Of a stretch of 64,000 nt of DNA, positions 8,385 through 45,328 are shown piece by piece (position 1 is the first letter of the stretch; the number at the start of each line of letters is the position of its first letter). The stretch lies in the NCBI GenBank assembly GCA_011033025.1, contig WFMF01000485.1, positions 1-64,000 of the forward strand, given 5' to 3'. This DNA comes from Beroe forskalii. Lineage: Eukaryota; Ctenophora; Nuda; Beroida; Beroidae. The notes below the pieces were generated by a model, which was given only the letters and a program-made list of their open reading frames with translations, was not told the origin of the DNA and ran no database searches. The position numbers were made by a program, and so were the translations under genes.

Positions 8385-8423
8385 GTCACTAACGCTCCAT
8401 GCTAACCCCTGATAATGACGTCA
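8385..8423 (+). promoter_or_regulatory. 39-bp dispersed motif, site 1
   Basis: Starts GTCACTAACG and ends in the full TGATAATGACGTCA block (GATA-type plus CRE-type site). Exactly 39 bp from the first G to the last A, like most other copies in this window. Confidence 0.6.
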
Positions 8424-9212
8424 TTCCTCAAGTAATATTCGTGTAGGACACCTATAATTGCATTGACACAACTACACCCGAATCAGCACTTGTTGAAATG
8501 TTTTCACTTTGTCCTGAGAATATTGAAGTATTGAGAAATTTGCATTGATTTTCGAGGGCTGTGTTTGTTAATAATATAATTGCTGTATATCAAAATTCAA
8601 AAGTGATGAAATGGATTTAGAATATTTAATAATGTGTCGGGGATTTTTGATGAAAATCTGATGGACAATGAATGAGACTGAGTAAATGTGTGAGGCTGGA
8701 TTTGTGCGACAAATGATGTTTTTTTCTCAACGTATTTCTGAGTATTGACCTTATTCAAAGTAAAATAAAAGTTACCGATTCAACGAATTCTTATCGACAA
8801 AGAAGATTGATTCGTGTCGGTTGAACTGGAAAAACGATAACTTGTAGGTTTTAAGATCCATGGTGTGCGAAGTAGTCCAAACCAAACTTTACCAAGAAGC
8901 CAAGTAAAATCTTCCATTTGTAGTCAGGAAAGTAGGATTTAGGATTGCTAGAATTCCCAAAAGTCATTATTACCAGCCTCCAAAACTGTCTTTTTGAACT
9001 GACATTATTTGACTAAATTTGAGTATATTTTGAGTATATTTGACAATAATTGAACTGACTATCTTTTTACGGTGCTCATATAAGCCTCGCATGTTTATAA
9101 ACATATATCCTACCCCAAAGAAGGGCTGATGAGGGTAATTAGCAGCCAGGCAGGAGACCCACTTAAATATCGATTACCTAATTAGGGTCCTGTAAGAGAC
9201 ATCACATTGTGG

Positions 9213-9213
<1 letters not shown>

Positions 9214-9243
<30 letters not shown>
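9214..9243. repeat. GA dinucleotide microsatellite
   Basis: About 30 bp of uninterrupted AG repeats, apart from the boundary bases. Confidence 0.95.
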
Positions 9244-9245
<2 letters not shown>

Positions 9246-9842
9246 TGTGCCAAAGTTGTGAATTGCAAATTGCCGCTTATTATGACACCTATAGTATATG
9301 TGATCACTGAGCAATAGGCAGGGGTTGTTATAGTGGTTTGAGTGACAAATAGCTCACAGCATGTCAATATTCCAGGTATGTAACAATGATTCAATGATGC
9401 CTAGACAGCCCGGTTCAAGCTTGAAGTAGATAAGTAACCAGCCAAACCATCTAGATTTATTCTAATCGGCGACAAGTGTCTTAGAGAAAAAAGGCCCCTA
9501 ACGAAAAATTGAGATTTTATTCATTTGTGGGCGTGATGAAGTTAGATGCTCTTAGTCCTGCCTTAAACCTCTAATGTGCTCATTCCATCCAGATTATGGA
9601 ACCAATTTACTTTAAAGTTGTAGATTTAAAGAGATAGGACTTTTTACGCGTTTGAAATCGCGATTTTCTGAGGATCTAACATGATAATTTGAAGAATTCT
9701 CATCGTTTGTTTTACCGGTTGCTCTTACACATAACGTTTATTATTTAAACTGTACTCTGCAGTGTAACTATGGCGACGCCTGAACTCAAACCTGACCTAT
9801 GTACTACCAAACACATCACACTGCAAAAGCAGATGGTTTGGT

Positions 9843-9881
9843 GTAATCAACTCACCACTCTAATCCCTGATAATGACATCA
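9843..9881 (+). promoter_or_regulatory. 39-bp dispersed motif, site 2
   Basis: Starts GTAATCAACTCACCACTC and ends TGATAATGACATCA. It carries one substitution in the CRE core (ACATCA for ACGTCA). Length 39 bp. Confidence 0.6.
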
Positions 9882-10127
9882 CGAATAGACACCTAATAGT
9901 ATATCCCCGACCACTTTATCATCACTAATATAAATAGCAGTTAAAATCACCTCCTTGCACTACAACTACTACAAATCCTTATCATGCCTTAATCATCCAC
10001 TAATCGGAGTCTAATTCGAGGAATTGTTTTTTAATCACCAATCACTCATTAACTCACTCCCACACCACCTTCCTTCAGAGGATCAGAATCTTTACAGAAA
10101 ATACGGTTGAAAAGTAGGTCATGTGCC

Positions 10128-10166
10128 GTAGTCAACTCACCATTAAAAACCCTGAAAATGACGTCA
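10128..10166 (+). promoter_or_regulatory. 39-bp dispersed motif, site 3
   Basis: Starts GTAGTCAACTCACCATT and ends CTGAAAATGACGTCA. The GATA part is changed (GAAAAT), the CRE is intact. Length 39 bp. Confidence 0.6.
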
Positions 10167-10622
10167 TTGGCCATTGCCAAGCCTCAACCCCCTGTTTCAC
10201 GCTGCACCTAATATAGCATTAATGATCTGTTCAAAGCGAATTAAGTGCACTCATCCGATATAAATATAATAGCGTGTACCACTAAAACGATCTAATCATT
10301 GATTTGTAATGATTTAAGAGCATTAGAATTAATTCAGTACGTCTCATTAGCACAGGTACAGTGAATATATGTATAAAGTTAGGCGTATCTTCAGCATATC
10401 AAGTGTCCATATCGAATAGCCCTCAAAGCTGATAGTTCATGATTTATCGTACCAAAAAATATTGCAGATTAGCCTTGTGTGGCAATTTTACAATAAAAAT
10501 GACCAATATTCCAATCAATCTTGATGTTGAAAAAGTGATGCAATATAAAGCTGATGGTTTCTCCATTTTGTTACATGTTGTCTGAGAATACTGAGAAAAC
10601 CTACCGAGGGTGACCAATCCAT

Positions 10623-10770
10623 AATCGGACGATTCATTCACAATTCTCTGTTCGAAGTTTCGAAGTTTTTTAAATCTGATTCTTAGTATTGTATTGAAAT
10701 CGGACGATTCATTCACGATTCTATGTTCGAATTTTCGAAGTTTTTGAAATCTGATTCTTAGTATTGAAAA
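10623..10770. repeat. Tandem duplication, period 76 bp, two copies
   Basis: ATCGGACGATTCATTCAC begins at 10623 and again at 10699. Both copies run through TCGAAGTTTTT to CTGATTCTTAGTATTG with a few mismatches. Confidence 0.85.
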
Positions 10771-11597
10771 CTTCGTCCTTCTAGCATTGAATAAGGTGCC
10801 ATATTTTGCAACCTGTGATAAGAAGGAGCTGGTAATATGAGATCATTATCATGGTTGAAATGATGAGTCCAGAAAATCATTGTTTTTCGGAAATGACTTG
10901 GGGCTGAGCATTTTTTCGGAAACACCTAAGCTTTGTTTCGGAAATGCAAAATAAAACGTTACTTAAATATGCATTGTACTTAAGTCATACTTAAGTAAAG
11001 TTTCGGAACAGACCCCAGAACATCACTTTGCTATTTTCCTGTGTCTCCGTCTTTTTCGCCTTACGAAGCGCCAGCTTCTATCAAACATAGAAACAGATAT
11101 AAAAACATAGAAATATCCTACATCTATAGAAATATATCCTTCATACATAGAAACATATCCTACATAGAGATCATGATTTTAGGTTCCGGATATGTATGCG
11201 ACACATAACATACACCATATAACCATTGGGTGCAATGCACAACAGTATCTCCAAACCTCCTCATTATCTCTCATCAGTGTTTGTAATATACGACTTGTCC
11301 TATATAATATGTGATTTGACCTACTTCTCTACTTCGCCCTCAGTTTTCCAGAACCAAGTACTCTAGAGTATATCACGGAATAATACATGAGATATATATT
11401 ATAACTGCGCCTTCAGTGACCAGTGTAAAGTACAGAGTTCATAGACCTACTGAAGAGAGCTCAGGGTGTATAAGTTTTTGAATATATACCTGAATATACT
11501 AATATAGTGATATACTTGTATGATGCAGGAGTGAGTCCACATAATATATATATCTCTTCCTCATATATCTCCTTATCTTGTTTAGAGCTGCTCTGAC

Positions 11598-11636
11598 GTC
11601 ATCAATGTGCTATTAAAAACCCTGACAATGACGTCA
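11598..11636 (+). promoter_or_regulatory. 39-bp dispersed motif, site 4
   Basis: Begins inside a full TGACGTCA (11594-11601) and ends CTGACAATGACGTCA, so a CRE-type octamer lies at both ends. Length 39 bp. Confidence 0.65.
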
Positions 11637-12386
11637 TTATATACCAACAATCCCTCTTAGGATATCTCTCTTTATATATAAACAATTTAAACAATTAAAC
11701 AATTGTAATTTTGTTCATATTGTACATTGGCAATGTAATCAAAGATAATATTTCTCTTAACAAACACACTGAAATGTTGAAATTAGGATTTGATGGGGAT
11801 TGGGTTAAAAATTTCACTAACAGAATTTGGGATTAAAATAGGCTAATACTGCTATAGGTATAAGGAGAGTCGTGTATGCTTCCTCAACAAAAGAGATATT
11901 ATATGCTAATTGTTGGTACCTGCAAGTAAGAGAGATATGCCTTGAACTTCACATATAAGAGGGTATATAATGTGGATGTGAACTTAGCCTGGACTGACAT
12001 GGACAGTTTCCATGTCAGATTGGAGACTGTAAACCTTTCAAAAGGCAACTTCACGTTTTATTTCTCCATATTTTGCCATCTTCATGTTTTATTTCTCCAT
12101 ATTTCTGCCATGTCTTCAGCAGTTCTCCTGTGACTGTGGCAGTTCCGTAGTTCCTAAAGTCTAAACCTATCATTCTATAAACCTGTACATGTGTTTTGTA
12201 CGTGTTTTGTTCTAAGCATGGTTTGGAATGATGAATTGATGGCGTTTAATACTTTAATATCACCTATTTTTGTGTCCCACTTGTAGACTTCATGGCACGT
12301 TCAAATCATCAGCTCCTGATTGCGTGAACTGATAAAAGGTATGCTAGTTATTTACAGATACCCACTTTCAACACAGAGTGATTCTC

Positions 12387-12425
12387 GTCATCAACACACC
12401 ATTCTAACCCCTGATAATGACGTCA
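12387..12425 (+). promoter_or_regulatory. 39-bp dispersed motif, site 5
   Basis: Starts GTCATCAACACACCATTC and ends TGATAATGACGTCA, followed by CTCTCA. Close to the consensus throughout. Length 39 bp. Confidence 0.7.
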
Positions 12426-12953
12426 CTCTCAATACATATAGTGTGTTGGCAGCTTGATGATCGGATTCCAAGCATCGTATCACGACACAATAATTGATGA
12501 AGTGTCCTGAGTAGTACCTGGCAATAGGTGTAGAAATCCCAAAATACGTGTCAAGTTGACTAGAATTGTAGCGCCGGGTATTTTATACGAATATTCCTTT
12601 ATGTTTTAAGAATATTCCGAGATAATATGATGATAATGTGGCGACGAGGTTGCCTCGAAAATCAATCCATTTAAATCTTTAGTTTTTGTCCGTTTATGGA
12701 AGTCACGAGACTCTGTTAAGAATTTGGACTCATTTTTATTTTACCAAAATAAAAAGTTGGTACGTAAATTCGAAAAGCAGTTAATCAAGTGAAAAATATC
12801 ATAATCATACAAAAAAGAGAAAAAAACTGGAAAAAGTGAAAAATATTCTGATGAAAATTCTGCCGTTCACCCTTGAACGGCTCCATGCAGCTTTCAGCCG
12901 ATCCTATTACCATTGAAATCAGAGTAACGCCTTCCTGAGAAAACAGGCGTTTT

Positions 12954-12995
12954 CACATCAACACTTCCCTTCTATAAACCCTGATGATGACATCA
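12954..12995 (+). promoter_or_regulatory. 39-bp-type motif, site 6 (42 bp, diverged)
   Basis: CACATCAACACTTCCC...ACCCTGATGATGACATCA followed by CTCTC. It is three bases longer than the other copies and the CRE core has ACATCA. Flanked by AGGCG at 12945 and CGCCT near 13003, which can pair. Confidence 0.5.
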
Positions 12996-13026
12996 CTCTC
13001 CCCGCCTATTATACGCCGCGCACAAA

Positions 13027-13094
13027 AATAGGCGGTTATTTTCAACAATTTGGCTGTGTGCACAATGTAAATGAGGTTATTGTGGCCGCCTATT
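13027..13094. repeat. AATAGGCGG hairpin element, copy A
   Basis: AATAGGCGG at 13027-13035 pairs with CCGCCTATT at 13086-13094. The left arm continues TTATTTTCAACAATTTGGCTG. The same arm and loop-side sequence recur at 22135-22211, 9 kb away, with differences, and the left arm alone recurs near 28926. A structured dispersed repeat of unknown role. Confidence 0.7.
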
Positions 13095-14396
13095 CATTCT
13101 GAGCATATATTAATGGATTGATGCGATTAATCAGCAAATCATTAGTAATTAGTAGATCATTAGCTGATGGCACTTGTTATATAACCACATACATGTAAAC
13201 GATCAATGGAATTTGTTACGCTTCTGAGATTCCTGGATTAGATTTGACAGGTAGTGGTGGATGGAAGGAAGTGGTTCAAATCTTTTAATTTCAATAAACG
13301 GCTTGTTAGCTTACTTTCATTCGACATTGACCAATCATCGCGCGGATTGACCGTAAACTTGTACAACGATTGGTCAGTTTCATGACGATTTTGAAGTCCG
13401 AGGGTAAGCTAATACGCCACTGATCTCACTAATAATTGGCAAAATAGCAGTAATAATTACAATATGTTAAAATTCCTAGTAATTATTAGTGGATTCGTGG
13501 AAAATAAAGAAATAAGTAAGTAAATAATTAGTATATTAGTTAATTGAATGAGTAATACAAATTTCCGTTTGGAGGTACAATGGCGTATTTAGAAACTGCT
13601 TCTAATTTGAGATTCCTTTAAATTTCAGGATACGAATTTTTAGGGCACTCATTACATATCTCAAAGTAGTTTGAAGTTATGGAAGTTACTTTCATGCATA
13701 TATAAATTCGTCTTACCCAGATTCAAGAGTGCCTGATTTCAATGAATTTATTGAATTTTTATATTATGAATGTAATGCAATCTTTCAGCACGAAAGTTTG
13801 TGTTTCGTATAAAGTTAATGAAAAATAGTTGAAGAAATTTAGTTAACAAAATTTTGAAAATAGAATAAAACGCTCGATCGAGCTCCAGCTTTTAGATGTT
13901 GCATATCTTAGCGAGTATTGATTCATTGAAAGCAAATGCGGGTACCTATATACTCAAAGCAATCGTAGAAAGAGAAATATACAAGCAAGCTTTATTATAA
14001 TTATTAACCGTATTGTATTCTCAAAACTATAAATGATGCCCTTTATAATATCAAAACATCCTAAATCGATAATTCGAAGTAGCTTTGGAGGTACGAATTG
14101 GAGGCACTAAATTATCGAATATTGCAGCTCGATTCTGCACCGTAATATAGATCGAAATAGATTAAATGAGCTGCTCAAAGCCAGCTCGCATTGCACCCTC
14201 GTATGAATTGAATGAATCCCCCTGAATATTATACTTATTAGTTACATTAAATCATATAATTATCAGTAAAATATAAATATTAACGCAGGGCAGGAATAGG
14301 ATGAATACTGGTTATATGGATGATTGATTCATGTCCTTCTTCCCGGTGTCTTGTTACCTTAACTTAGAGTCTTCTGTGGAGAATAGACCATTTCAT

Positions 14397-14435
14397 GTCA
14401 TCAATTCACCATGTAAAGCTATGATAATGACGTCA
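14397..14435 (+). promoter_or_regulatory. 39-bp dispersed motif, site 7
   Basis: GTCATCAATTCACCATG...CTATGATAATGACGTCA, followed by TGATGA. Length 39 bp. Confidence 0.65.
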
Positions 14436-15037
14436 TGATGACTCGTCTAGTGTTGCAGGACGACCTATTATCATTAACGATCACCCCTCAAGATGGAATG
14501 TTACCAGGATCCCCCTTCCTCGATCCTTTTCTTTGGTTGCAGTGCACTTTCTTAAGTAGCTTAGTGATTTAGTAGCTTAATGCTTTAATGATTAAGTAGC
14601 TTAGTGATAGATGATGTAGCTTAATAATTAAATAGCTTGTTTAAGAAGTTATCAATTCAAAATATTCTTCTTCGAAATCACATTGCGAATTTCGATAAAA
14701 AGATGAAATATTGTTCACTTTTCAATCCGAAAGAATGGATATCGGTTCAACGGCATATCCTCGTACAAGTGTTTTTTCTCTCTGATTCTTCCTCCTCAAA
14801 GTCCACCAATCTAGCTGTCTTCCACATAACAATTGACATTCAACATAACATATATTGTACGCTAGAACCTAGTATAACAAGACAACTTAAGACAGGAAGC
14901 ACACCTGAAATTCCTCCCTGAATAACCAGGAAACGGTTATTAGACTGACATAAGTACAGAAAACTGACTCAGGCACTACAGACTGCCGACCACAATACTC
15001 TTCAGAATGTGAGTATGAAAAGTAGGCGGATGATAAC

Positions 15038-15076
15038 GTCACAAGTGCACCATTCTAAGCCATGATAATGACGTCA
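15038..15076 (+). promoter_or_regulatory. 39-bp dispersed motif, site 8, within a TAGGCGG/CCGCCTA stem
   Basis: GTCACAAGTGCACCATTC...CATGATAATGACGTCA, length 39 bp. It is enclosed by TAGGCGG (15022-15028) and CCGCCTA (15084-15090), so the motif would sit in the loop of a possible stem-loop. Confidence 0.65.
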
Positions 15077-15221
15077 TTCTCAACCGCCTAAATATTTGGT
15101 GGATGTCCATGGGGCGTTTGTCGAGACAGCTCACGAGCTTGTTTTCCTCGGGCTAACTTTAGCTTCTTGTAATTAAGTACCTATCTCCAAGCAGTCTTGG
15201 TGGCTTCAACACGGCAATGAA

Positions 15222-15260
15222 GTCATCAATTTACCACTTTAAACTTTGATAGTGACGTCA
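15222..15260 (+). promoter_or_regulatory. 39-bp dispersed motif, site 9
   Basis: GTCATCAATTTACCACTTT...TTTGATAGTGACGTCA, length 39 bp. Only about 145 bp downstream of site 8. Confidence 0.65.
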
Positions 15261-15807
15261 GTTTCTTCCTGCTTAGGTTTGACAGACAGCGGACAGACGA
15301 CCCTAATTTACTTGACATAACATATTCTTCATGAACATACATAATATATTGTGATTTGTGTCGCAGTCTGAGACTCAAAGTCTATCAAGTATCACTACAA
15401 AACTGATTTGTTAAAATCATACGGAGAAGTCTTTCGGCTTTTTTGTGAAAATTGCAATGGAACTGCGAATATCATTGACAAACGCCAAGTCCGATGAATT
15501 GAGAGTCTTGGGATTCGTTGGGATGATAAATCTTTACAGAGTCGCATTTGTGTGTATGTATTTGTGTACAAGATTCCCAAAGACATACAACTCTCTGACA
15601 CACATACACATACACTCTGGCACACTGTGACACAATTAAGCAATTATTACACACACCACGGGAATACAGGATCTTGCTGCTAATTACTGGTCCATTGTTC
15701 TTACACCGCACAGTGCGCACTTAATTTGAAAAACAAAAGTCTAATTAAGCCTCATTACACCTGTGGCTACTGTAGCTCTACGAGTAGGAACAATAGGAAA
15801 TTCAGAG

Positions 15808-15846
15808 TGACGTCATTGTCATGGTTTGGAGTGGTGAGTTGATGAC
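15808..15846 (-). promoter_or_regulatory. 39-bp dispersed motif, site 10 (inverted)
   Basis: The only copy in reverse orientation: the plus strand reads TGACGTCATTGTCATGG...GAGTTGATGAC. Its reverse complement matches the consensus over the whole 39 bp. Confidence 0.65.
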
Positions 15847-16895
15847 GAAACACTGTCCAGTTTCTGAGCGCTGCCGCTGCCTACGAATCGTACCGATTAT
15901 ACTCGAGTGTGTGTAATTGGCGAGGTTTTGTTCTGTGGGTTTTGTTACCCTGGTGATCACGTGACCATGTCACGTGACGATCACGCGCGTGGTGGCGCGC
16001 AGGTTTCACGCACGTGCACGCCCACCCTGTCGCCTTGGTGAATATTGCGGTACAATGATATATTGTAATTTGTAGGTGTGTAACAAAGTGTGTTATAATA
16101 ATTACATTGTGTGGTCTCAGCAGCTGAATGTGATTATTATCGCAGAGAGTAAACAGAAACACTCTTTTATTTGTCTTTGAAGAGCTGTAGAGGCTTTCTT
16201 TTCAGAGAAAAATTACAATAATTGGTAATTAACTAGCAAGATGGTGGTTTTGATTGTGTTTTAGGTGATGAATGAACGCTTGACCTTGTGCGTGGAAGCC
16301 ATTGTCTTTTTAGCTTTTTCCTTGGAATGTTTCCAAAACAAAAGAAAGTTTATGGAGAACACAATATAGAGAGTACTTTGAAAATATTTCCAAAATCCAA
16401 CATCTGCCCACTCTAATCCTTAATTTGTATTTTACCTACGGTAAGCACTGAGCAGTCTGTACTAGAATTCTCGTATGTTTTATATGAGCTATCTTATAAG
16501 TACATAATTGCTCGTACCAACAGAGCTATTTTTACATAATTATGCATAATTATGCTCAATTAATACTTAAATTATTACACGTTAATTTAAAAGATCTACA
16601 TGCTATAATAAAAAGCACATATTTTATGATCACTTAAGTGACTGCCTTATTAAACGATCTTGAAACTAAGGTTTAAGGTGCACTTAATTAAGGGGTGAAA
16701 TTGAGTGATCTGAGATCTCTTAATTCCGCGCACTAAGGTATAATAATACACGTACATCATCATTATACATTAATTACACAAAATACACAAATCACATATT
16801 ATTATTTTTCCGGAGGGGAGTTCAAGACATACATAATGTACTTATTAATGTGCATGTGACATGTACCCCGCACGAGAGAGAAATAGCCAAGTGAC

Positions 16896-16934
16896 GTCAG
16901 TAAAACACCACTTTAAACCATGATAATGACGTCA
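16896..16934 (+). promoter_or_regulatory. 39-bp dispersed motif, site 11 (CRE at both ends)
   Basis: Begins inside a complete TGACGTCA at 16892-16899 and ends CATGATAATGACGTCA, giving two CRE-type octamers at a fixed distance. Length 39 bp. Confidence 0.7.
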
Positions 16935-17075
16935 CAACCAACCGAATATGATTCAAACGCCGTGTGGTTTGTCTCCCCTTTCGGCAGGGACTGTAGCCCT
17001 CAGAACCATACTATAACTTGTCATCGTACGGTGGGAGAATGGATGGTTGGTATTGTGTAGAGAGAGAGTGTGAAA

Positions 17076-17104
17076 CGTTATCATCACTTGTAGTGATGAT
17101 AACG
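17076..17104. repeat. Perfect 13-bp stem-loop
   Basis: CGTTATCATCACT, loop TGT, then AGTGATGATAACG: a perfect inverted repeat with a three-base loop. No U-rich tract follows. Possibly a cruciform-type or protein-binding palindrome. Confidence 0.85.
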
Positions 17105-18181
17105 TGATCAATTACTGTGGCACCGGGAAGGTAAGGGACTCGTTTTCATCCAAAGTCTTCAGTCCCCTTCCAGCTTTCTAGTAGTAGAAGATTATAATTC
17201 ATCAGCTGGTCTATGCGCACTTTGCCAATCACTGACTCACCTTATAGTCGAAATGGAGTGTTTTCCATGTCAAGGTGGATCTGAAGATGGGAATTTTCTT
17301 GCCCAATCTCGATCTATCTACTAAAAATGGTAACTTTCTGGCATTATCTGGCATTGAATTTCGAAGCTTAAGGATGATACCGTTCAAATAATACACCAGC
17401 TGTAACCGATATCTCACTCAAAATCTACTCAACTCACAGAAATGTAGCGAAATCCGCTAATGGTGTACATTATTAAGTTACGATTATTCTGTTGAAAATT
17501 AACAACGTACACCGAAATTGAAGATCATCCCACGGTACTATATTTAGGTTAATAAGGACACAATAAGCCTTACACGTTTCTTGGTGAAATCGTCGATTTA
17601 GTACTCATCAATTTGATCAAAATTGCGACATCCCTGGTAAACGAAGAGGCGAAATATATCATTCAGTGATGCTTAATAATTAGCAATTTGAACAACATGA
17701 AATTGATAGAACATTGAACTGATCACTAAATTAAAGTGAAAATGAGATGTCAATTACTGAAAACCAATTAGTAGAAAGTCCTTTCTGACTTCCCTTCCCT
17801 TCAAAAGAAATTTCTGATTCGTATTTCTCATAATTTCTCAAAGTTTTTGTCTCACGGTAGTCTTGTTTCCAATCTTGGCACCACACTTCTAGTGTCTACT
17901 CCTTGTCTACTCCTTTTCTACTCCTTGTACTGTTAAAGTCTACTCCTCGACCCTTTATCCCTCAAGAATTATACTACCGTTTCATCTCATCTCTGGGTAG
18001 GTACCCTTTTCATTTAATTTTTCTGTTAATTTGAGGTACTCGCCAGATAGGTTCAGGGGACAGGGTTACTGGACGTTAGGGCACTGTCCTTGGTTATATG
18101 GGACACACTCAATGTCGGTGGGTAGGTACCTGCTCGACTGTTGTCTGCTACTATTGCCACAGGTCGTCAGAGAAAATTTAT

Positions 18182-18220
18182 GTCACTAAATCACTATTTT
18201 AATCCATGATAATGACGTCA
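18182..18220 (+). promoter_or_regulatory. 39-bp dispersed motif, site 12
   Basis: GTCACTAAATCACTATT...CATGATAATGACGTCA followed by CTCTCA. Length 39 bp. Confidence 0.65.
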
Positions 18221-18844
18221 CTCTCACCAGATCTATTCTCCTCCACAAGTCGTATACCAATTATACGGTGATCAAGTTACACCAGGTCTTGTCTATCTCT
18301 AAACATGTATCTCTACTTCTCATGATAAACTTTCATTGATACAAACCATGTCTTGCCACCAGTTAACATTTCAGTCTACAGACCCATCTGTACATAACTC
18401 TATTCTACCTTTGTTAAAGTATTGTATATCTACAATCCACTCTACACTACACTCAGTAGTTTTCTTTATTTCTTTATTTAGATTAAGCTTGGTTTTTACT
18501 GACTACTGCTTCTATGCTGTGCCTTTTTAATTTTCTTTTAATCTTTTTGTTATTATGTAGGGTATCTATTGGTGTTGACGCGACGTATTATTCCCTTAAG
18601 AAAAGGTTAGCAGGACTCTGAAATGAAACCCTAATCGTGATTGCCCTATATTTCGTGCCGAAAGTAGATAGGTCTTTTCGATATTTCATAGGTTTAATAA
18701 GCATTAGTTTTACCTATTTAACAGTTATCCCTAAGGTAGCTGGGAATATCCTGGGATAGTTCAAATCGTTGAAATGCTTTTCCAATTCTGAACTTCCTAA
18801 TCCTGTCGACGGAAATTGCAACTTTAGACTTACAGTTCCTCCCT

Positions 18845-19235
18845 TCCCCAAGTACTTCCTGGGATAGTTCCAAGGAGAGTTCCAAGGAAATGCTCTAATC
18901 TCAACCTCTGATACTCCCTAATACCTATACTGATAGTAGATAGTCCCTAACTTATACTCAAAATAGAATACCTATCCACAGATTTCCACAGAGTTCCATA
19001 GAGTTATTATCTAGTTTTACTGTTTTAATTCATTTGAATTTGAAGAGCAATCGCCTATCGAATCCTCCCTTAATTTACCTGCCAATTTTGAAAATTTACA
19101 AACCCTGGAAATGCTCTACATACCCTAATCTCTAACCCCGATAAGTACTCCCTATATACCGCACTATGTACTGATACTCCCTATACTGTATACCTCAAGA
19201 AGTTCCTGGGATAGTTCCAAGGATAGTTCGTAGTT
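18845..19235. repeat. Diverged duplication of a CT-rich segment
   Basis: Phrases such as CCTGGGATAGTTCCAAGGA, GGAAATGCTCTA, CTCTAACCCC/CTCAACCTC and GATACTCCCTA occur at 18850-18940 and again in shuffled order at 19105-19230. An old local duplication of noncoding sequence. Confidence 0.6.
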
Positions 19236-19383
19236 CCGGATAATTAGATACAGAGTACAGTAAGACAGTAAGACAGCGTATTATATGTGAGTGGTCATAT
19301 TAGGTCCGTGTAAATAGTCCATCTAACGTCAAATTACAACCTTCCCTCGCAAAGAGGAGTGACTCTACAAAATCATCCTGAGT

Positions 19384-19634
19384 CACGTGACTTAGCGTCG
19401 CTGACCAATCAGCGTGCAGTATCAGAGCACGTGTCACGACACCAGCCAATGAGGGTTCGCTGAGTTGGTCACGTGACAGGTTTAACAAACCGCATCATTA
19501 GTTCGGTTCTTGACATACAATTACTTCTCATTACAGGAACAATAGCCTCCGTGGGTTACTGATCACGTGATCGGGCAATACTGCCGCCCCATTGGTGGAT
19601 GGGGATCACGGGGTATTGCCATGGGGATCACGTG
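19384..19634. promoter_or_regulatory. Cluster of CACGTG E-boxes and CCAAT boxes
   Basis: Five CACGTG hexamers (19384, 19428, 19470, 19564, 19629), most as TCACGTGA or TCACGTGG, plus CCAAT at about 19405 and 19445 and ATTGG near 19591, all within 250 bp. CACGTG is the classic bHLH-ZIP site and CCAAT the NF-Y site (established knowledge). No exon follows that I can recognise, so a promoter or enhancer role is inference. Confidence 0.45.
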
Positions 19635-20140
19635 GTATTTCCATGACAACACGTGTTTCGAGTAGAGATTGTTCTTATTAAAATATACAGTTCTCTGACT
19701 TGGTCGAGGGAGATGCGCGGCGTCCTTATAATTAAAACTGGGATACAGAGTACCACAACCTCATAAGACACTTCATTGGTACCAATGCGTCCTGTGAAGT
19801 GAGGTGGGACAAAGGAGTGAAGTGGGACGAGATGGGATTTGAAATCGGGCAATAGGGTATTAAGATCCGAAGTGAAATCGGGCAATTGGCGATTAAGTTC
19901 CGAAGTGAAATCATTAGGAAGATAATCATTGTTATGAATCTTGCGTTAGATCTAGGTGACCAATGCATACTGTGAGGGAGTGAAATGGGATAAGATAGGA
20001 CTATTATAGGAGAGGACAGAATTAGGATTTGAAATCGGGCAAATAGCGATTATTAGTAGGCTCGATTATTAGTACTTATTATAAATTTAAATAAGATTTA
20101 ACGCTCAAGGTTTCATTTTCTCTGCATCTCCAGTGTTCTG

Positions 20141-20234
20141 TTCTATAAAAAGTCCACACACTCCTAGCTTTACTCAATAAATCTCCGGTTCTATAAAAAG
20201 ATGATGGAAACGTCAGAGGGTTCTATAAAAAGTG
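20141..20234 (+). promoter_or_regulatory. Three repeated TTCTATAAAAAG TATA-like boxes
   Basis: TTCTATAAAAAG occurs at 20141, about 20190 and 20221, two of them followed by GTCCACAC or GTGCACATTC and then GCTTTACTC. The repeated unit looks like a tandem core promoter, but no downstream transcript can be shown. Confidence 0.4.
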
Positions 20235-20364
20235 CACATTCTTGCTTTACTCTCCATCCTCTCCTCTCTCTCTGCCCGCACAATAGTTAATTGCCAGACA
20301 ATAGGGCCGTAAATACGGCAACAAAAGCAGGCACACGAGCATGATATACCTCGGACAATGACAC

Positions 20365-20403
20365 GTCACAGAAACACCATGTTAAGCCCTGATTATGACG
20401 TCA
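20365..20403 (+). promoter_or_regulatory. 39-bp dispersed motif, site 13
   Basis: GTCACAGAAACACCATG...CCTGATTATGACGTCA followed by CTCCC. Length 39 bp. It lies about 130 bp after the triple TATA-like repeat. Confidence 0.6.
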
Positions 20404-20690
20404 CTCCCTCCTGTAACAAAAGTAGCAGGAGGTGCGAGGAGCGTGGTGGTTGGAGCCAGGCCTGTCTGCAACCTGCATTACAGTGGTCATTTCCTGTTAG
20501 TTGCTCTTCTCGTGTGTTTGACTTGGTGAGGGCTTAGTAACACTGCTAGAAGGAACTTATTATATACTGACCTAATCAGTGATCAGTGATCACCCATGTA
20601 AAATAGGTACGCTATTTAACATTTAAGATATTCGCATAATATTATTAGCGAAATTTTGAAGGTTCGCCTCAATATAATATTTCTTTTCTA

Positions 20691-21050
20691 CCTTATTACA
20701 GGAAATATCGCCTACAGAAAAATGAGCCTACATGTCATTAAGCTACATGAAATTAAGCCCTTTTTTGAGGCCCTAGGGCTTAATTACATGTAGGCCTAAT
20801 TTGATGCATTCTTAAATACATGCAGCCAAATTATCATATGTTGAGATAGAAATTTCATGAGATAGAAATTTCAGCCTTGTAAGCTTGTATGCAAATAATT
20901 AAGACTTTACATGTTACGAATTAGGAATTTTTGGCTTTATTTGACACTTTGATAGTTTATATTACTCTCCAATTACCACTTAACACAATTAATTACAATT
21001 GGGGAATTTTCAGAGACGATGATTACAATGACAAAATAACCTATAGAATA
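20691..21050 (+). mobile_element. Partial tandem copy (first 360 bp) of a TA-flanked element
   Basis: Starts after TA with CCTTATTACAGGAAAT and matches 21051-21410 almost base for base. It then stops, and the next full copy begins directly. The period is exactly 360 bp. It contains the inverted repeat TACATGAAATTAAGCCC / GGGCTTAATTACATGTA. Confidence 0.85.
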
Positions 21051-21845
21051 CCTTATTACAGGAAATATCGCCTACAGAAAAATGAGCCTACATGTCATTA
21101 AGCTCCATGAAATTAAGCCCTTTTTTGAGGCCCTAGGGCTTAATTACATGTAGGCCTAATTTGATGCATTCTTAAATACGTGCAGCCAAATTATCATTGT
21201 GGAGATATAAATTTCATGAGATAGAAATTTCAGCCTTGTAAGCTTGTATGCAAATAATTAAGACTTTACATGTTACGAATTAGGAATTTTTGGCTTTATT
21301 TGACACTTTGATAGTTTAAATTACTCTCCAATTACCACTTAACACAATTAATTACAATTGGGGAATTTTCAGAGACAATGATTACAATGACAAAATAACC
21401 TATAGAATAGATTATCACAGCATCATGAGAATCTTATCAGTTACATCAAATTAATGATCGAATATGTTTCCACAAAACACCACATAATAGCTGATTATCA
21501 TTATGGCCTTGATTCTTGAAAACATTGGACGCTATGTAAATTCAGGTATGAAGGTTTGAAAGTATGATGGAGTGTCAAGAAGTGAGCTCCAAGATGTGTC
21601 TATTGCATTATTGATAGTCTTGGCAATACCAGTGGCTTTCCATCCGGCATCAATTCAAAGCTTAATCAATACTGAATAATAAATAATTGAAAAAAATCAA
21701 TGTTTTCGAACTTATTATGTTCAAATTTGCTTGAAAAATTAGTCCTCATGAAATTAAGAATACATGTCATTAAGGTGCATGAAATTAAGCCCTTTTTGAG
21801 ACCTTAGGGCTTAATTATATGTAAACTTAATTTCCTGTAATAAGG
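21051..21845 (+). mobile_element. TA-flanked TIR element (795 bp, non-autonomous)
   Basis: Ends are CCTTATTACAGGAAAT and ATTTCCTGTAATAAGG, preceded and followed by TA, the target-duplication type of Tc1/mariner-like elements (established knowledge). Both ends carry a subterminal hairpin, AAATTAAGCCC...GGGCTTAATT. No transposase gene is present. A third, truncated copy in reverse orientation lies at 63059-63803. Confidence 0.85.
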
Positions 21846-22134
21846 TATTTCTTTTCCTTTGCGGTCAGCAATTATAGATCGAAGGGATTCCCTTCACGAT
21901 CTCAAAGCACTACCTAATTGCTGAGGCACAAGTCACACTTTATATTTTCACATTTTATACGATGTACTCCTGAACAGACCTGGAAGAATGCAGGTTTTAT
22001 GGTCGTTATATATCCTTTTGTCTCGGCCATATATTGACCATATAGTTACAGCATGACAATTCAAATGACTCATGGTAAACCCAGGCAAAACATGAAATGA
22101 GCTGCCTCATGAGCCTATTTATACCCTTGCGAAA

Positions 22135-22211
22135 AATAGGCGGTTATTTACAACAATTTAGCTGCTCAAATACTGTTAATGACGTCATATTTGATATTGC
22201 GACCGCCTATT
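22135..22211. repeat. AATAGGCGG hairpin element, copy B
   Basis: AATAGGCGGTTATTTACAAC at 22135 pairs with GACCGCCTATT at 22201-22211. The loop holds GTTAATGACGTCAT. Related to the copy at 13027-13094. Confidence 0.7.
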
Positions 22212-35649: not shown

Positions 35650-36880
35650 CTGGGGAGGGAGTCACGTGATACGCTGGGGAGGGAGTCACGTGATACGCTG
35701 GGGAGGGAGTCACGTGATACGCTGGGGAGGGAGTCACGTGATACGCTGGGGAGGGAGTCACGTGATACGCTGGGGAGGGAGTCACGTGATACGCTGGGGA
35801 GGGAGTCACGTGATACACTGGGGAGGGAGTCACGTGATACGCTGGGAGGGAGTCACGTGATACGCTGGGGAGGAGTCACGTGATACGCTGGGGAGGGAGT
35901 CACGTGATACGCTGGGAGGGAGTCACATGATACGCTGGGGAGGGAGTCACGTGATACGCTGGGGAGGGAGTCACGTGATACGCTGGGGAGGGAGTCACGT
36001 GATACGCTGGGGAGGGAGTCACGTGATACGCTGGGGAGGAGTCACATGATACGCTGGGGAGGGAGTCACGTGATACGCTGGGGAGGGAGTCACGTGATAC
36101 GCTGGGGAGGGAGTCACGTGATACACTGGGAGGGAGTCACGTGATACGCTGGGAGGGAGTCACGTGATACGCTGGGGAGGGAGTCACGTGATACGCTGGG
36201 GAGGAGTCACGTGATACGCTGGGAGGGAGTCACATGATACGCTGGGGAGGGAGTCACGTGATACGCTGGGGAGGGAGTCACGTGATACGCTGGGGAGGGA
36301 GTCACATGATACGCTGGGGAGGGAGTCACGTGATACGCTGGGGAGGGAGTCACGTGATACGCTGGGGAGGGAGTCACGTGATACGCTGGGGAGGGAGTCA
36401 CGTGATACGCTGGGGAGGGAGTCACGTGATACACTGGGGAGGGAGTCACGTGATACGCTGGGAGGAGTCACGTGATACGCTGGGGAGAGTCGATACGCTG
36501 GGGAGGGAGTCACGTGATACGCTGGGGAGGAGTCACATGATACGCTGGGGAGGGAGTCACGTGATACGCTGGGGAGGGAGTCACGTGATACGCTGGGGAG
36601 GAGTCGTGATACGCTGGGGAGGGAGTCACATGATACGCTGGGAGGGAGTCACGTGATACGCTGGGGAGGAGTCACGTGATACGCTGGGAGGGAGTCACGT
36701 GATACGCTGGGGAGGGAGTCACGTGATACGCTGGGGAGGGAGTCACGTGATACGCTGGGGAGGGAGTCACGTGATACGCTGGGGAGGGAGTCACGTGATA
36801 CGCTGGGGAGGGAGTCACGTGATACGCTGGGGAGGGAGTCACATGATACGCTGGGGAGGGAGTCACGTGATACGCTGATT
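35650..36880. repeat. 24-bp minisatellite with TCACGTGA core, about 50 copies
   Basis: The unit contains AGTCACGTGATACGCTGGGG plus GAGG. Most copies are 24 bp, some 22-23 bp by loss of G or GG, and a few carry TCACATGA. Every intact unit has a CACGTG E-box, and on the minus strand ends in CTCCCTCCCCAG, a pyrimidine tract plus AG. Long open frames across the array are artefacts of a stop-free repeat. Confidence 0.97.
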
Positions 36881-37060
36881 GAGCGGCCTGCAGTACTAAA
36901 GAAGTAAAGAGGAGTGTTGCAAGGAGCAGCTGTGCTGTGGACAGTGTAGCTGATCAGGGACAGTGGACGACGAGATGAGTTCAGTGAGGGGTTCGGTGAG
37001 GGGTTCAGCAAGAAGTTCAGGACGCTGTGGACATGTCGTGGAGAACGAGGACAGACTCAG
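36881..37060. other. Unique spacer between two minisatellites
   Basis: About 180 bp of non-repetitive sequence with GGTTCGGTGAGGGGTTCAG phrases. No splice-bounded coiled-coil peptide was found, though the minus strand is open (PELLAEPLTEPLTELISSS). Its status is unclear. Confidence 0.4.
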
Positions 37061-38490
37061 GAGAGCAGACCCACAGGAGGGAGAGCAGACCCACAGGAGG
37101 GAGAGCAGACCCACAGGAGGGAGAGCAGACCCACAGGAGGGAGAGCAGACCCACAGGAGGGAGAGCAGACCCACAGGAGGGAGAGCAGACCCACAGGAGG
37201 GAGAGCAGACACACATGAAGGAGAGCAGACCTACAGGAGGGAGAGCAGACACACAGGAGGGAGAGCAGTCCCACAGGAGGAAGAGCAGACCTACAGGAGG
37301 GAAAGCAGACCCACAGGAGGGAGAGCAGACCCACAGGAGGGAGAGCAGACCCACAGGAGGGAGAGCAGACCCACAGGAGGGAGAGCAGACCCACAGGAGG
37401 GAGAGCAGACCCACAGGAGGGAGAGCAGACCCACAGGAGGGAGAGCAGACCCACAGGAGGGAGAGCAGACCCACAGGAGGAGGAAACCCACAGGAGGGAG
37501 AGCAGACCCACAGGAGGAGAGCAGACCCACAGGAGGAGAGCAGACCCACAGGAGGGAGAGCAGACCCACAGGAGGGAGAGCAGACCCACAGGAGGGAGAG
37601 CAGACCCACAGGAGGGAGAGCAGACCCACAGGAGGGAGAGCAGACCCACAGGAGGGAGAGCAGACCCACAGGAGGGAGAGCAGTCCCACAGGAGGAGGCA
37701 GACCCACAGGAGGGAGAGCAGACCCACAGGAGGGAGAGCAGACCCACAGGAGGAGAGCAGACCCACAGGAGGGAGAGCAGACCCACAGGAGGGAGAGCAG
37801 ACCCACAGGAGGGAGAGCAGACCCACAGGAGGGAGAGCAGACCCACAGGAGGAGAGCAGACCCACAGGAGGGAGAGCAGACCCACAGGAGGGAGAGCAGA
37901 CCACAGGAGGGAGAGCAGACCCACAGGAGGGAGAGCAGACCCCAGGAGGGAGAGCAGACCCACAGGAGGGAGAGCAGACCCACAGGAGGGAGAGCAGACC
38001 CACAGGAGGGAGAGCAGACCCACAGGAGGGAGAGCAGACCCACAGGAGGGAGAGCAGACCCACAGGAGGGAGAGCAGACCCACAGGAGGGAGAGCAGACC
38101 CACAGGAGGAGGGAGCAGGCCCACAGGAGGAGCAGACCCACAGGAGGGAGAGCAGTCCCACAGGAGGGAGAGCAGACCCACAGGAGGGAGAGCAGACCCA
38201 CAGGAGGGAGAGCAGACCCACAGGAGGGAGAGCAGACCCACAGGAGGGAGAGCAGACCCACAGGAGGGAGAGCAGTCCCACAGGAGGGAGAGCAGACCCA
38301 CAGGAGGGAGAGCAGACCCACAGGAGGGAGAGCAGACCCACAGGAGGGAGAGCAGACCCACAGGAGGGAGAGCAGACCCACAGGAGGGAGAGCAGACCCA
38401 CAGGAGGGAGAGCAGACCCACAGGAGGGAGAGCAGACCCACAGGAGGGAGAGCAGACCCACAGGAGGGAGAGCAGTCCCACAGGAGGGAG
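37061..38490. repeat. 20-bp minisatellite, about 70 copies
   Basis: Unit GAGAGCAGACCCACAGGAGG repeated over 1.4 kb with rare substitutions and deletions. No stop codon occurs in several frames, hence very long open frames on both strands (plus-strand Gln/Arg/Gly-rich, minus-strand Leu/Ser/Cys-rich). With no splice signals or codon logic, I treat it as intronic satellite. Confidence 0.97.
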
Positions 38491-42276: not shown

Positions 42277-42315
42277 GTCATCAAGTAAATGCTGTAAACC
42301 ATGATAATGCGATGT
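42277..42315 (+). promoter_or_regulatory. 39-bp dispersed motif, site 14 (distant copy)
   Basis: ACGTCATCAAGTAAATGC then TGTAAACCATGATAATGC. The 3' CRE is lost (GCGATG). About 22 kb from the other copies, inside an intron of the coiled-coil gene. Confidence 0.5.
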
Positions 42316-43047
42316 GATAATCAGTTGGCGGCGGGCCTGTAATCACAGTATATTTCACGGGGAAGGCAAAGTGTTAGCCGTTATTACTTTATTAGACGAC
42401 AAACGCAATATATCACAGTTTGCTCGGAGCACCGCCGAGCAAGCTCTATTGACTAAATAAAACTGAAGAAAAAGTCTCGGGAACTAAAAAATAAAGTGAT
42501 AATCTTCTTTCCACTGATGCCCAGGCCTCCGCATGCTTAGGAACAGCAGAGTTTACTTGAGCGTGTTTGAAGGAAGCTATGCAGGAGTGACAGCATTGTC
42601 ATGCTCTACAGTGGGAGAAAGTCCTCCTCCATCAGCTCACCTGCAGCGTACAGATTTGCGAGATAAAGCCACTAGCGCTATTTACTTTCTTGAGGGGCGA
42701 GGTGTTCACAGAGGGATCCTAGTTTTGATTTCTACTTTATTAAAAGTCAAATTAATTGTAATTGTTATTCTAATTGTAAATCAGAAGTGGCGGGGCTACG
42801 AAATCATTGCATATACTATGTTCTATACCTTTCAGCCATGTTTTCATAATAATTCACAATGCATATTTTCTGAATATTTATAACAGCTACAGTCTGCACT
42901 GGAATCACTTGAACTCTTGAATAATTTTGTGCTGTATAAATTTTCTAAAATGATTAATTTGATATTCCTGGACCAATTAAGGGTTTCGTGCCACAACAAT
43001 TCAAAGGGCAGGGAATTAATCAATTTACTGCACAGTAAGACAGTAAC

Positions 43048-43122
43048 TCAATGAATTCATATGAAATATAACATTTTACCATTAGAATTGTAAAATGTTA
43101 TATTTCATATGATTTCATTGAG
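43048..43122. repeat. 75-bp palindromic hairpin
   Basis: Arms contain ATATGAAATATAACATTTTA and its reverse complement, around a loop CCATTAGAATTG. Also present in the right arm at about 62753-62829. It lies immediately 3' of exon H. Confidence 0.85.
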
Positions 43123-43149
43123 TAATAGACCCACGCCGCTGTCCCTCAC

Positions 43150-43293
43150 CTCAAGCTCCACAACTTTGTTCTTCAGGTCAATGTTAGGGTTGAGGGGGGT
43201 GGGAGGGGCGGCCCTCTGTTTCGCCAGCTGCAACTGTAGGCTGTTGTTCAGTCTGTCACGGTCCTCAACTTCTTTCTTGAGGCGTGTCACCTC
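43150..43293 (-). CDS. Coiled-coil gene, exon H
   Basis: 144 bp, 48 codons, phase 0 at both ends. Acceptor AATTCACTCTTCAG, donor GTGAGGGA. The peptide EVTRLKKEVEDRDRLNNSL, then QLQLAKQRAAPPTPLNPN and IDLKNKVVELE: two coiled-coil parts separated by a Pro-rich hinge. Identical in the right-arm copy. Confidence 0.9.
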
Positions 43294-43853
43294 CTGAAGA
43301 GTGAATTAGAAATTGCAGTTAACCCTAACCCTCAGCTCTACTCAGGGTCGTCGAGTCGAAACGTCCAGTCGAGTCGAAACGTCGAATCGAGTCATCAAGT
43401 CCAATCTGAATCATGAATCATTGAGTCATGTTGTCGAGTTGAGCCGAGTCGCCGGGATCAAGACAAGAAAGGGCACCCTTAATGAAAAGAGCTCTTCAAG
43501 ATAACGGACTGATAACTGGTAAGGAAGTTTGTCCCCCAGCGGGGGACAAATCCTCCTGGACTGCGTGAGGAAACCTGATAGCTCCCAAGACTCAGGATGT
43601 CCCCAAGCTTGTCCCCGTGACTATCAAGCAATGCTCAGCTTATAGATAATTCACGATAGAAGTTTGCACTGCAATCAAGGCACATTACAGGCAAATTCTG
43701 ATTTTCAAAATCGCATAACTCAGACTAGCAACAAGATTATCTCATTCGGTAAAGTTTTCTGGTACCGATGCTCTCTATCATTTCTAGCCAAGAACTCAAT
43801 TTTGGCCATCGACGCCCTGAACACCCCCTTGCCCCCTTAAGTTTGATGATTAC

Positions 43854-43971
43854 CTCAGCTCTGCTTTGACTGATGTTGGAGAATTGGGAGAGTTGGTTCA
43901 AAGTCTCCCGTTCCTGTTGGTGTCTCTTCTCCAAGTTTCTCATCTCGTGTGTCAATTTAGCTTTATCGTCA
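43854..43971 (-). CDS. Coiled-coil gene, exon G
   Basis: 118 bp. Acceptor TTGTAAACGTTTTTCAG-type, donor GTAATCAT. The first base completes a Ser codon with exon F. The peptide is DDKAKLTHEMRNLEKRHQQE, then RETLNQLSQFSNISQSRAE. The right-arm copy has one extra codon (ETLSNQLS instead of ETLNQLS), a 3-bp in-frame difference. Confidence 0.9.
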
Positions 43972-44009
43972 CTGAAAAACGTTTGTAAAATAGAATTTAG
44001 ATCAGATAT

Positions 44010-44085
44010 GCGGGGAGATAGCTCAATTGGTAGAGCACTGACCGGCAATCAGAAGTTTTGGGTTCAAGCCCCGCTCGCTCGCCCG
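44010..44085 (+). tRNA. tRNA-like sequence (probable pseudogene or SINE head)
   Basis: A box TAGCTCAATTGG and B box GGTTCAAGCCC are at correct spacing, with a D-stem GCTC/GAGC. The anticodon stem pairs only CTGA/TCAG around CCGGCAA, giving a possible GGC (Ala) anticodon but C instead of the nearly invariant U33. T-stem and acceptor stem have mismatches. It lies in the intron between exons F and G. A functional tRNA-Ala is unlikely. Confidence 0.5.
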
Positions 44086-44274
44086 CTCATTTTCAGATCA
44101 CCGAGTTTGTATGTGTGACTACAGGCAGGCAGAATTACAAATAAATAGAATTTAGGAAGTAAATATTAGGGTATGAGACAGTTTTTGGGCTAAATTCCTG
44201 GAATTTTTCTTGAGGGCGTTTTTGGAAAACCAAGCCTTGAGGGCCATATAATCCCATGGAATAAATTAACCCAC

Positions 44275-44444
44275 CTTCTGTCCAGCATATCTTGCTTCAT
44301 CATTTCAATGCTGTGTTGCAAGTCAGAAATAACATCATTTGCAGCCTGCACTCGCTTCCTCAAATTGTCTTTAGTTTCTTCTGAGGTTTTGTTGGTTATC
44401 CAGTTGTCATCTCCTTCCTTGCTCTTCAGGATAGCCAGCAGCGT
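44275..44444 (-). CDS. Coiled-coil gene, exon F
   Basis: 170 bp. Acceptor CAACTCTTTCAG, donor GTGGGTTA, which is weaker than consensus. The peptide TLLAILKSKEGDDNWITNK, then TSEETKDNLRKRVQAANDV and ISDLQHSIEMMKQDMLDR leads into the coiled coil. It ends with two bases (AG) completed by exon G. In the right-arm copy the acceptor reads TTTGAG. Confidence 0.9.
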
Positions 44445-44989: not shown

Positions 44990-45132
44990 ACCACCAAAAC
45001 CGTTGGACGGTTGGTCTAGTAACCCCCCGCTGGTTTGGATGTGATCAGCCCATTTTGTCTCTTTTCAGGTTCCGTTGTCACATCCAAACCCGCGGGGGGT
45101 TACTAGACCAACCGTCCAACGGTTTTGGTGGT
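44990..45132. mobile_element. 143-bp foldback MITE with about 54-bp arms
   Basis: Arms begin ACCACCAAAACCGTTGGACG and end CGTCCAACGGTTTTGGTGGT. They contain a CTAGTAACCCCC block and TTTGGATGTGA. Absent from the right arm of the inverted duplication, where homology breaks at the same point. Confidence 0.85.
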
Positions 45133-45157
45133 GATATCTTGACAGATGTATGTAGTT

Positions 45158-45285: not shown

Positions 45286-45328
45286 AGTTATTCTAACTTG
45301 AAATTACTAGAATTGATATATGTCTTAA

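What the first reader, a model, noticed from the sequence alone, without database searches (positions are those of the whole stretch)
8385..20403. Fourteen copies of a rigid 39-bp motif ending in TGATAATGACGTCA
Thirteen copies within 12 kb of otherwise unremarkable AT-rich DNA, plus one at 42277, share a start GTCA(T/C)CAA, a middle CACCATT/CACTTTAA and an end CCNTGATAATGACGTCA, with unrelated flanks. All but one are exactly 39 bp from the first G to the last A, and all but one have the same orientation. Seven carry CGTCA at the 5' end too, so two CRE half-sites lie 35 bp apart. The fixed length with a variable centre suggests a two-ended protein-binding or RNA-gene control element rather than an ordinary transposon. 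It could also be a very small repeat family.
Basis: seen in the sequence. Interest (0 to 1): 0.85.

Follow-up and report, generated by a model that had tools for sequence, protein, structure and literature searches.

The report
Ancient mobile-DNA remnant, core preserved
In what looks like a comb-jelly genome, a rigid 39-base motif that is the centre of a tiny mobile element occurs thousands of times, and in old copies it has stayed more intact than the DNA beside it, as expected of a widely used protein-binding site.

Summary
In detail: 13 copies at 8385-20403 and a decayed one at 42277. The motif is genome-wide: at least 7,719 exact TGATAATGACGTCA in 216 Mb (reversed control 3), at least 17,705 with up to one mismatch (control 92). 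Of 100 listed from 1,949 paired-half matches, 89 are exactly 39 bp.

Young copies are the centre of a ~105-bp element with 27-bp terminal inverted repeats, a MITE. In older copies the arms have decayed and the core much less. With the 3' flank as anchor, divergence is 0.18 in the core's 3' half and 0.41 in the opposite arm (21 loci, p=1.6e-4). The core, not the transposon end, is retained.

The genome is most likely a ctenophore. Best reading: a MITE-dispersed, bipartite protein-binding site kept by purifying selection, like the CERP2/CELE2 MITEs of Caenorhabditis. Selection, binding and function are inferred. In young copies the core-versus-arm difference is not significant once CpG sites are removed (p=0.08).

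The parts
8385..8423 (+). 39-bp core copy
   Evidence: 49.5 bits; exact 14-mer end
9843..9881 (+). 39-bp core copy (GACATCA end)
   Evidence: 50.6 bits
10128..10166 (+). 39-bp core copy with both arms resembling the inverted repeat
   Evidence: arm scores 17 and 28; 95% null 15.15
11598..11636 (+). 39-bp core copy with a full TGACGTCA at both ends
12387..12425 (+). 39-bp core copy
   Evidence: 56.6 bits
12957..12995 (+). diverged 39-bp core copy, both arms recognisable (ACAGGCG ... CCGCCTATT)
   Evidence: (33.2 bits)
14397..14435 (+). 39-bp core copy
15038..15076 (+). 39-bp core copy between inner arms (AAAAGTAGGCGG to the left, AACCGCCTA to the right)
15222..15260 (+). 39-bp core copy
15808..15846 (-). 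39-bp core copy, the only reversed one of the 13; both arms just above the null
   Evidence: 16 and 18
16896..16934 (+). 39-bp core copy with a full TGACGTCA at both ends
18182..18220 (+). 39-bp core copy
20365..20403 (+). 39-bp core copy
10838..10876 (-). decayed copy, 3' half TGATAATGATCTCA
12217..12244 (-). dead copy: 5' half and centre kept, 3' half lost
   Evidence: family D15
22132..22211 (+). related element with arms AAAAATAGGCGG ... CCGCCTATT and a different centre; carries only the 3' half of the core
   Evidence: D13
13024..13094 (+). relative with the same arms but no 39-bp core
   Evidence: D13
42277..42315 (+). decayed copy, 3' end broken (TGATAATGCGATGTGA)

Best explanation
The motif is the retained core of an old, very abundant miniature inverted-repeat transposable element in a ctenophore. 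The element (about 105 bp: 27-bp arm, 6-bp spacer, 39-bp core, 6-bp spacer, 27-bp arm, usually TA at both ends) scattered thousands of copies. The 39 bp were a ready-made bipartite binding site: two inward-facing half-sites, CGTCATCAA... and its inverted partner TGATAATGACGTCA, at a fixed distance. After insertion the arms decayed. The core kept both half-sites and their spacing because a host protein, or a dimer contacting about 39 bp, binds it and many copies serve as regulatory or chromatin-architecture sites. Shown: the intact element with arms, high copy number, rigid spacing, and slower decay of the core than of the arms in old copies. Inferred: that the cause is purifying selection, that the selected function is protein binding, and what the protein does. 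The 35-bp tandem arrays fit slippage between the two TGACGTCA(T) ends of one core (inferred).
For: Copy number at least 7,719 exact and 17,705 with up to 1 mismatch; reversed controls 3 and 92. Spacing: 89 of 100 listed of 1,949 matches are exactly 39 bp; in 262 kb, 91 of 97 partnered sites with a 3' half above 15 bits lie at zero shift, shuffled sequence gave none at exact spacing. Intact element: of 20 loci fetched by an arm pattern, 17 have the core in the searched form, L046 has it with a 1-bp deletion, L040 in the other orientation, L036 badly decayed. Anchored on a perfect 5' half: 36 loci keep the 3' half with at most 3 of 14 mismatches in 30, perfect in 14, at exact spacing in 29; two have lost it; their flanks match the arm consensus only 0.33 and 0.31 (shuffled 0.12 and 0.16). 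Anchored on the 3' flank: 21 loci show divergence 0.177 (core 3' half), 0.254 (core 5' half), 0.414 (opposite arm), 0.540 (outer 3' arm), null 0.57-0.60; paired p=1.6e-4 and 1.0e-3. The 14-mer abutting the core end has only 58 exact copies, many in an unrelated repeat, against 7,719 for the core end.
Against: In 15 deduplicated young copies, non-CpG divergence of the core halves (18/389) is not significantly below that of the 3' arm (20/240), p=0.08; all 20 copies give 28/519 and 27/319, p=0.09. So constraint shows only in old copies. Arms of weak-arm copies are still slightly more self-complementary than permuted pairs (30, 72 and 24 of 2000 permutations reach the observed value in three overlapping subsets), so some copies may have been born with other arms, which would exaggerate the contrast. 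Dead copies exist (12217-12244, 42277). No expression, accessibility, binding or methylation data, and no second species. No transposase with these arms was found: PF13358 gave 5 matches; 4 loci of about 3 kb were read and none has the arm.
Confidence: 0.6

Rival explanations
1. Ordinary MITE family without host function. The core looks conserved because successive waves of elements shared it as an internal part needed for their own mobility while their arms changed, or because searches with the core pick intact cores.
For: Intact copies are a clear inverted-repeat element. A relative with the same arms and another centre exists (D13). Young copies show no significant CpG-corrected core constraint. 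Weak-arm copies keep slight arm complementarity.
Against: Searches anchored outside the core's 3' half, on the 5' half or on the flank, still find the core better kept than the opposite arm. For a transposon the ends should be the constrained part (general knowledge of TIR elements); in old copies they are the least conserved.
Confidence: 0.27
2. Chromatin-loop anchor site: the core is the binding site of a ctenophore architectural protein, the same as or parallel to CTEP1/CTEP2 of Mnemiopsis. (A special case of the best explanation.)
For: M. leidyi has 4,261 loops with a sequence motif at over 75% of anchors, and over 90% of loop promoters carry a DNA-transposon insertion; in placozoans the loop motif lies in a Mutator inverted repeat (PMC12221973, passages). 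CTEP1 had 14,638 DAP-seq peaks there; copy number here is of that order.
Against: The published ctenophore motif is described as GC-rich with two CpG; the 39-bp core consensus is 33% GC and its two CpG lie 35 bp apart. The logo is in a figure that is not held. No contact data for this genome.
Confidence: 0.2
3. CREB/ATF-type bZIP sites spread by a MITE: TGACGTCA palindromes act as cAMP-response elements in pairs.
For: The core ends in TGACGTCA; 7 of 13 window copies have CGTCA, some TGACGTCA, at the 5' end too.
Against: Conservation is one-sided: bases inside each half-site are conserved, those outside much less. A bZIP dimer would be expected to read the palindrome symmetrically and not to fix a 35-bp distance (general knowledge).
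Confidence: 0.12
4. Promoter or processing element of thousands of small RNA genes (like the Ruby motif of C. elegans piRNA genes, recalled) or a structured RNA.
For: Many clustered copies with mostly unique flanks.
Against: Beyond about 35 bp from the core's edges no position in the range printed exceeds 0.1 bit in 98 unique copies. No Rfam family in the cluster. Folding z about -0.5 for core and for weak-arm copies, -1.3 for strong-arm copies. Median rank of the true arm pair 0.49, although the mean exceeds all 2000 permutations.
Confidence: 0.04

Closest known systems
CERP2 and CELE2 MITEs of Caenorhabditis, bound by HIM-17 (PMC9757741; abstract and passages seen)
   Same: A MITE spread thousands of copies of a spaced motif pair; the motifs show conservation above neighbouring sequence at co-opted promoters; many copies lie outside active promoters.
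   Different: There the motifs lie within the inverted repeats; here they are the centre between the arms. Spacing used there is 12-16 or 23-28 bp between short motifs; here a 39-bp rigid core. Sequences and phylum differ, and no binding protein or promoter activity is shown here.
Ctenophore loop-anchor GC-rich motif bound by CTEP1/CTEP2 (PMC12221973; abstract and passages seen)
   Same: Same phylum (by my assignment); thousands of genomic sites; association of loop promoters with DNA transposons.
   Different: Described as GC-rich with two CpG; the 39-bp core is 33% GC. Identity cannot be tested from the text.
Placozoan Mutator TIR motif at promoter hubs (PMC12221973; passages seen)
   Same: A DNA-transposon sequence proposed as a domesticated architectural site.
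   Different: There the motif is in the TIR of Mutator; here the TIR is what decays. Superfamily not assigned here.
CRE / CREB-ATF binding site (recalled)
   Same: TGACGTCA at the 3' end of most copies.
   Different: Extra conserved inner bases and a fixed partner half-site 35 bp away.

Membership tests
[quoted passage not shown]
   27-bp arms, exact reverse complements in the young consensus; 695 arm matches with at most 1 mismatch, control 0
[quoted passage not shown]
   about 105 bp; counts
[quoted passage not shown]
   TA at both ends in 14 of 20 aligned copies, near-duplicates included; TA may be part of the arm; no empty site was sought
[quoted passage not shown]
   PF13358: 5 genome matches; 4 loci of about 3 kb read, none with the arm. 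Other transposase families not searched, longer elements not excluded
Co-opted MITE binding-site family (CERP2/CELE2 type) | Motif pair conserved above its flanks | tested here: met
   by comparison of copies within one genome; not significant in young copies; not tested between species
Co-opted MITE binding-site family (CERP2/CELE2 type) | A host protein binds the motif and nearby genes need it | not testable with these tools
   no binding or expression data
Ctenophore CTEP1/CTEP2 loop-anchor motif | GC-rich motif with two CpG | tested here: not met
   core consensus GTCATCAATTCACCATTTTAAACCATGATAATGACGTCA is 33% GC; the arms are GC-rich with several CpG and remain possible
Ctenophore CTEP1/CTEP2 loop-anchor motif | Located at loop anchors | not testable with these tools
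   no contact map for this genome
CRE (CREB/ATF) site | TGACGTCA palindrome as the recognition unit | tested here: inconclusive
   present at the 3' end; 5' end often only CGTCA; conservation one-sided
Small-RNA or structured-RNA gene element | Fixed-distance transcription signal or conserved structure | tested here: not met

The most novel reading that the evidence does not exclude
The 39-bp core is the recognition site of an undescribed ctenophore DNA-binding protein that reads a rigid, two-ended site at more than ten thousand places seeded by one MITE family: a second, lineage-specific architectural or regulatory code alongside CTEP1/CTEP2, kept by selection on the core alone.
Probability: 0.3. 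Interest if true: 0.8.

Novelty: new member of a known kind. Interest (0 to 1): 0.55.

Why it matters
CTCF is absent outside bilaterians, yet ctenophores form sequence-determined chromatin loops, and DNA transposons are enriched at the promoters involved (PMC12221973, passages). A MITE family whose central 39 bp outlives its own ends is a concrete, countable candidate for how a whole binding-site network was seeded in an early animal lineage. It can be tested directly by bait capture, accessibility and contact maps.

Tried and rejected
Hairpin RNA or compensating arms: several window copies looked as if their flanks paired (for example CGAATA/TATTCG at 8385). Over 98 copies the mean pairing score exceeded all 2000 permutations, but the median rank of the true pair was 0.49, and in weak-arm copies the excess was slight. 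Folding scores are weak. Rejected as the general explanation.

RNA gene or promoter: Rfam gave only two tRNA hits, outside the cluster; no signal at fixed distance.

Tc1-like partner: PF13358 gave 5 matches; none of 4 loci read carries the arms; L153 has its own different inverted ends.

Coding context: Pfam on 4 window frames found nothing above a curated cut-off; stop-to-stop frames in 20 C1 stretches were listed but not identified. Position relative to genes is untested.

Literature: the core sequence was searched as text in four forms (2 papers on Pseudomonas metabolism and a halogenase, each holding only the shortest form, once). Ctenophore with MITE terms listed 12 of 1,348 papers; only 2 of those 12 mention ctenophores, and by title they are on fireflies and a myxozoan. 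Ctenophore with chromatin, DNA motif and transposable element listed 3 of 3. None of the titles or abstract openings listed describes this family. The library is open-access only.

A conservation test in young copies was first run without CpG control and looked strong; with CpG sites removed it was not significant, and I report the latter. Clustering on C1 was first computed on all places I copied (23 of 36 same orientation); the reverse-strand listing appears to stop near 2.16 Mb (one search shows reverse sites beyond it that one search does not list), so I recomputed it up to there.
Full report
Observation. The 13 copies described at 8385-20403 are there, 12 on the + strand and one (15846) on the - strand, each fitting a 39-bp frame. 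The copy at 42277 is decayed, with a broken 3' end. Against dinucleotide shuffles the window holds 50 matches to TGATAATGACGTCA with up to 3 mismatches where 7.1 are expected, although some belong to other repeats at 46-49 and 59 kb that also carry TGACGTCA.

Genome-wide. The genome (216 Mb, 1,134 contigs) holds 7,719 exact TGATAATGACGTCA (reversed control 3) and 17,705 with at most one mismatch (control 92); the tool calls such counts lower bounds. GTCATCAA followed after 12-23 bases by TGATAATGACGTCA occurs 1,949 times (control 0); of the 100 listed, 89 are exactly 39 bp, three are 38, three 40, three 41 and two 42. A position weight matrix found 134 copies above 15 bits in 262 kb, which is the window plus 20 stretches of C1 picked for exact matches; no shuffled control was run at that threshold. 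Scanning with one half only, 91 of 97 partnered sites with a 3' half above 15 bits lie at zero shift, and shuffled sequence gave no partner at exact spacing. In the same scan 151 sites pass on the 3' half, so about a third have no good 5' half; on the 5' half 81 sites pass and 65 have a partner. Copies cluster: on C1 up to 2.16 Mb, 32 of 80 gaps between 81 sites are under 5 kb (40%, 17% expected) and one 26-kb stretch holds 17 (about 1 expected); orientation of close neighbours agrees in 20 of 32, so the one-way order in the window is local.

Anatomy. Averaging 98 unique copies shows conservation from the C before GTCATCAA to the final A, a fall at each end, and weak remnants of AAAATAGGCGG on the left and CCGCCTATTT on the right, then nothing. 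Searching with one arm (GCACGAGAAATAGGCGGTT, up to 1 mismatch) gave 695 arm matches (control 0). Of 20 fetched, 17 show the core in the searched form, one has it with a 1-bp deletion, one in the other orientation and one is badly decayed. The whole is about 105 bp: arm of 27, spacer of 6, core of 39, spacer of 6, arm of 27, with TA at both ends in 14 of 20. This is a MITE in structure. A second element in the window has the same arms and another centre (13024-13094, and 22132-22211 which has half the core). Of the 98 copies, 24 have both arms above the 95% null, 67 at least one, 31 none; in the window 10128, 12957, 15038 and 15846 have both.

Is the core kept on purpose? Searching with the core selects intact cores, so I anchored elsewhere. 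(a) A perfect 16-bp 5' half occurs 878 times (control 0). I fetched 36 of the 38 places listed from C99 onward, leaving out two in a tandem pair. With the best of 15 shifts, 30 of 36 have at most 3 of 14 mismatches in the 3' half (random sequence: mean 7.3, minimum 2 in 3,000), 14 are perfect, 29 keep exact spacing, two have lost it. Their flanks match the arm consensus at 0.33 and 0.31 (shuffled 0.12 and 0.16). (b) The 14-mer just outside the core end occurs only 58 times (control 0). Of 40 fetched I dropped 13 near-duplicates and 6 of an unrelated repeat. In the other 21, divergence is 0.177 in the 3' half, 0.254 in the 5' half, 0.414 in the opposite arm and 0.540 in the outer 3' arm, null 0.57-0.60, paired p=1.6e-4 and 1.0e-3; the 20 with a recognisable core give 0.154, 0.243, 0.409 and 0.529. 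So in old copies the core decays more slowly than the arms. Against this: in 15 deduplicated young copies with CpG sites removed, core halves (18/389) and 3' arm (20/240) do not differ significantly (p=0.08); weak-arm copies retain slight arm complementarity; and dead copies exist. CpG observed/expected is 0.75 in the sampled DNA, so CpG loss matters moderately.

Arrays. In the list, 21 of 100 places lie in tandem runs, mostly at 35-bp steps (also 36 bp at C1:1189187, and 31 bp at C66:246278-246888). Because both ends of the core read TGACGTCA(T), slippage between them would give the 35-bp unit; this is inference.

Organism. Contig C1134 (13,339 bp) carries a fast-evolving cox1 that reads with TGA as tryptophan and AGA as arginine at positions that I know as conserved arginines; ctenophore mitochondria are thought to use that code (PMC6991124, passages). 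The one ctenophore mitochondrial genome whose size I read is shorter, 10,487 bp (PMC7687593, whole text). Two iGluR ligand-binding regions from the genome match best the solved receptor ML032222a (220-223 bits) and next 4zdm (187 and 174 bits), ahead of all other chains; that these come from Mnemiopsis and Pleurobrachia is recalled. With the full-length protein, chains named kainate receptor 2 rank first (240.9 bits), since the ML032222a entries hold the binding domain alone. I take the genome as a ctenophore, species unknown.

What it is like. The nearest case in print that I read is the CERP2/CELE2 MITEs of Caenorhabditis: a motif pair spread by MITEs, bound by HIM-17, conserved above its neighbours (PMC9757741, passages). 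In ctenophores, loop anchors carry a GC-rich motif with two CpG bound by CTEP1 and CTEP2, and over 90% of loop promoters hold DNA-transposon insertions (PMC12221973, passages). The core here is 33% GC, so it is probably not that motif, but the logo is in a figure I could not see.

Verdict. A MITE family in origin, with its centre retained as a rigid two-ended site. That the reason is protein binding under purifying selection is the best-supported inference (0.6). The plain-MITE reading remains at about 0.27.

Noticed in passing
42817-48279 and 59187-63058: Long inverted repeat (pieces of 2,187 bp at 99.0% and 1,645 bp at 98.0%) about 11 kb apart, with Rfam tRNA hits at 44012 and 61785 in its arms; could be a large recent inverted duplication or a big transposon with long inverted ends.
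   Followed up: partly
59121-59151, 46382-46411, 49126-49155: Another repeat carries TGACGTCA close to further TGACGTCA-like words (an 11-bp unit TGACGTCATTA, 2.8 copies, at 59121) beside TTGATGACGTCA; it shares the octamer with the 39-bp core but not its structure.
   Followed up: no
L088 (C66:246250-246950); C14:196381-196558; C77:428746-429041; C88:171908-172016; C1:1189187-1189418: Tandem arrays built from the core with steps of 31, 35 and 36 bp.
   Followed up: partly
L111:691-949: Two exact core ends and one with two mismatches lie within about 260 bp, in the locus of an iGluR match on C264; the last two are 70 bp apart, twice 35.
   Followed up: no
35650-36877 and 37060-38490: Two long minisatellites (24-bp unit x 52 and 20-bp unit x 72) give long open frames on both strands that look like repeats, not genes.
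   Followed up: no
20689-21420 and 63043-63804: A 359-bp unit, two copies in tandem, recurs inverted near the end of the window at 98-99% identity.
   Followed up: no
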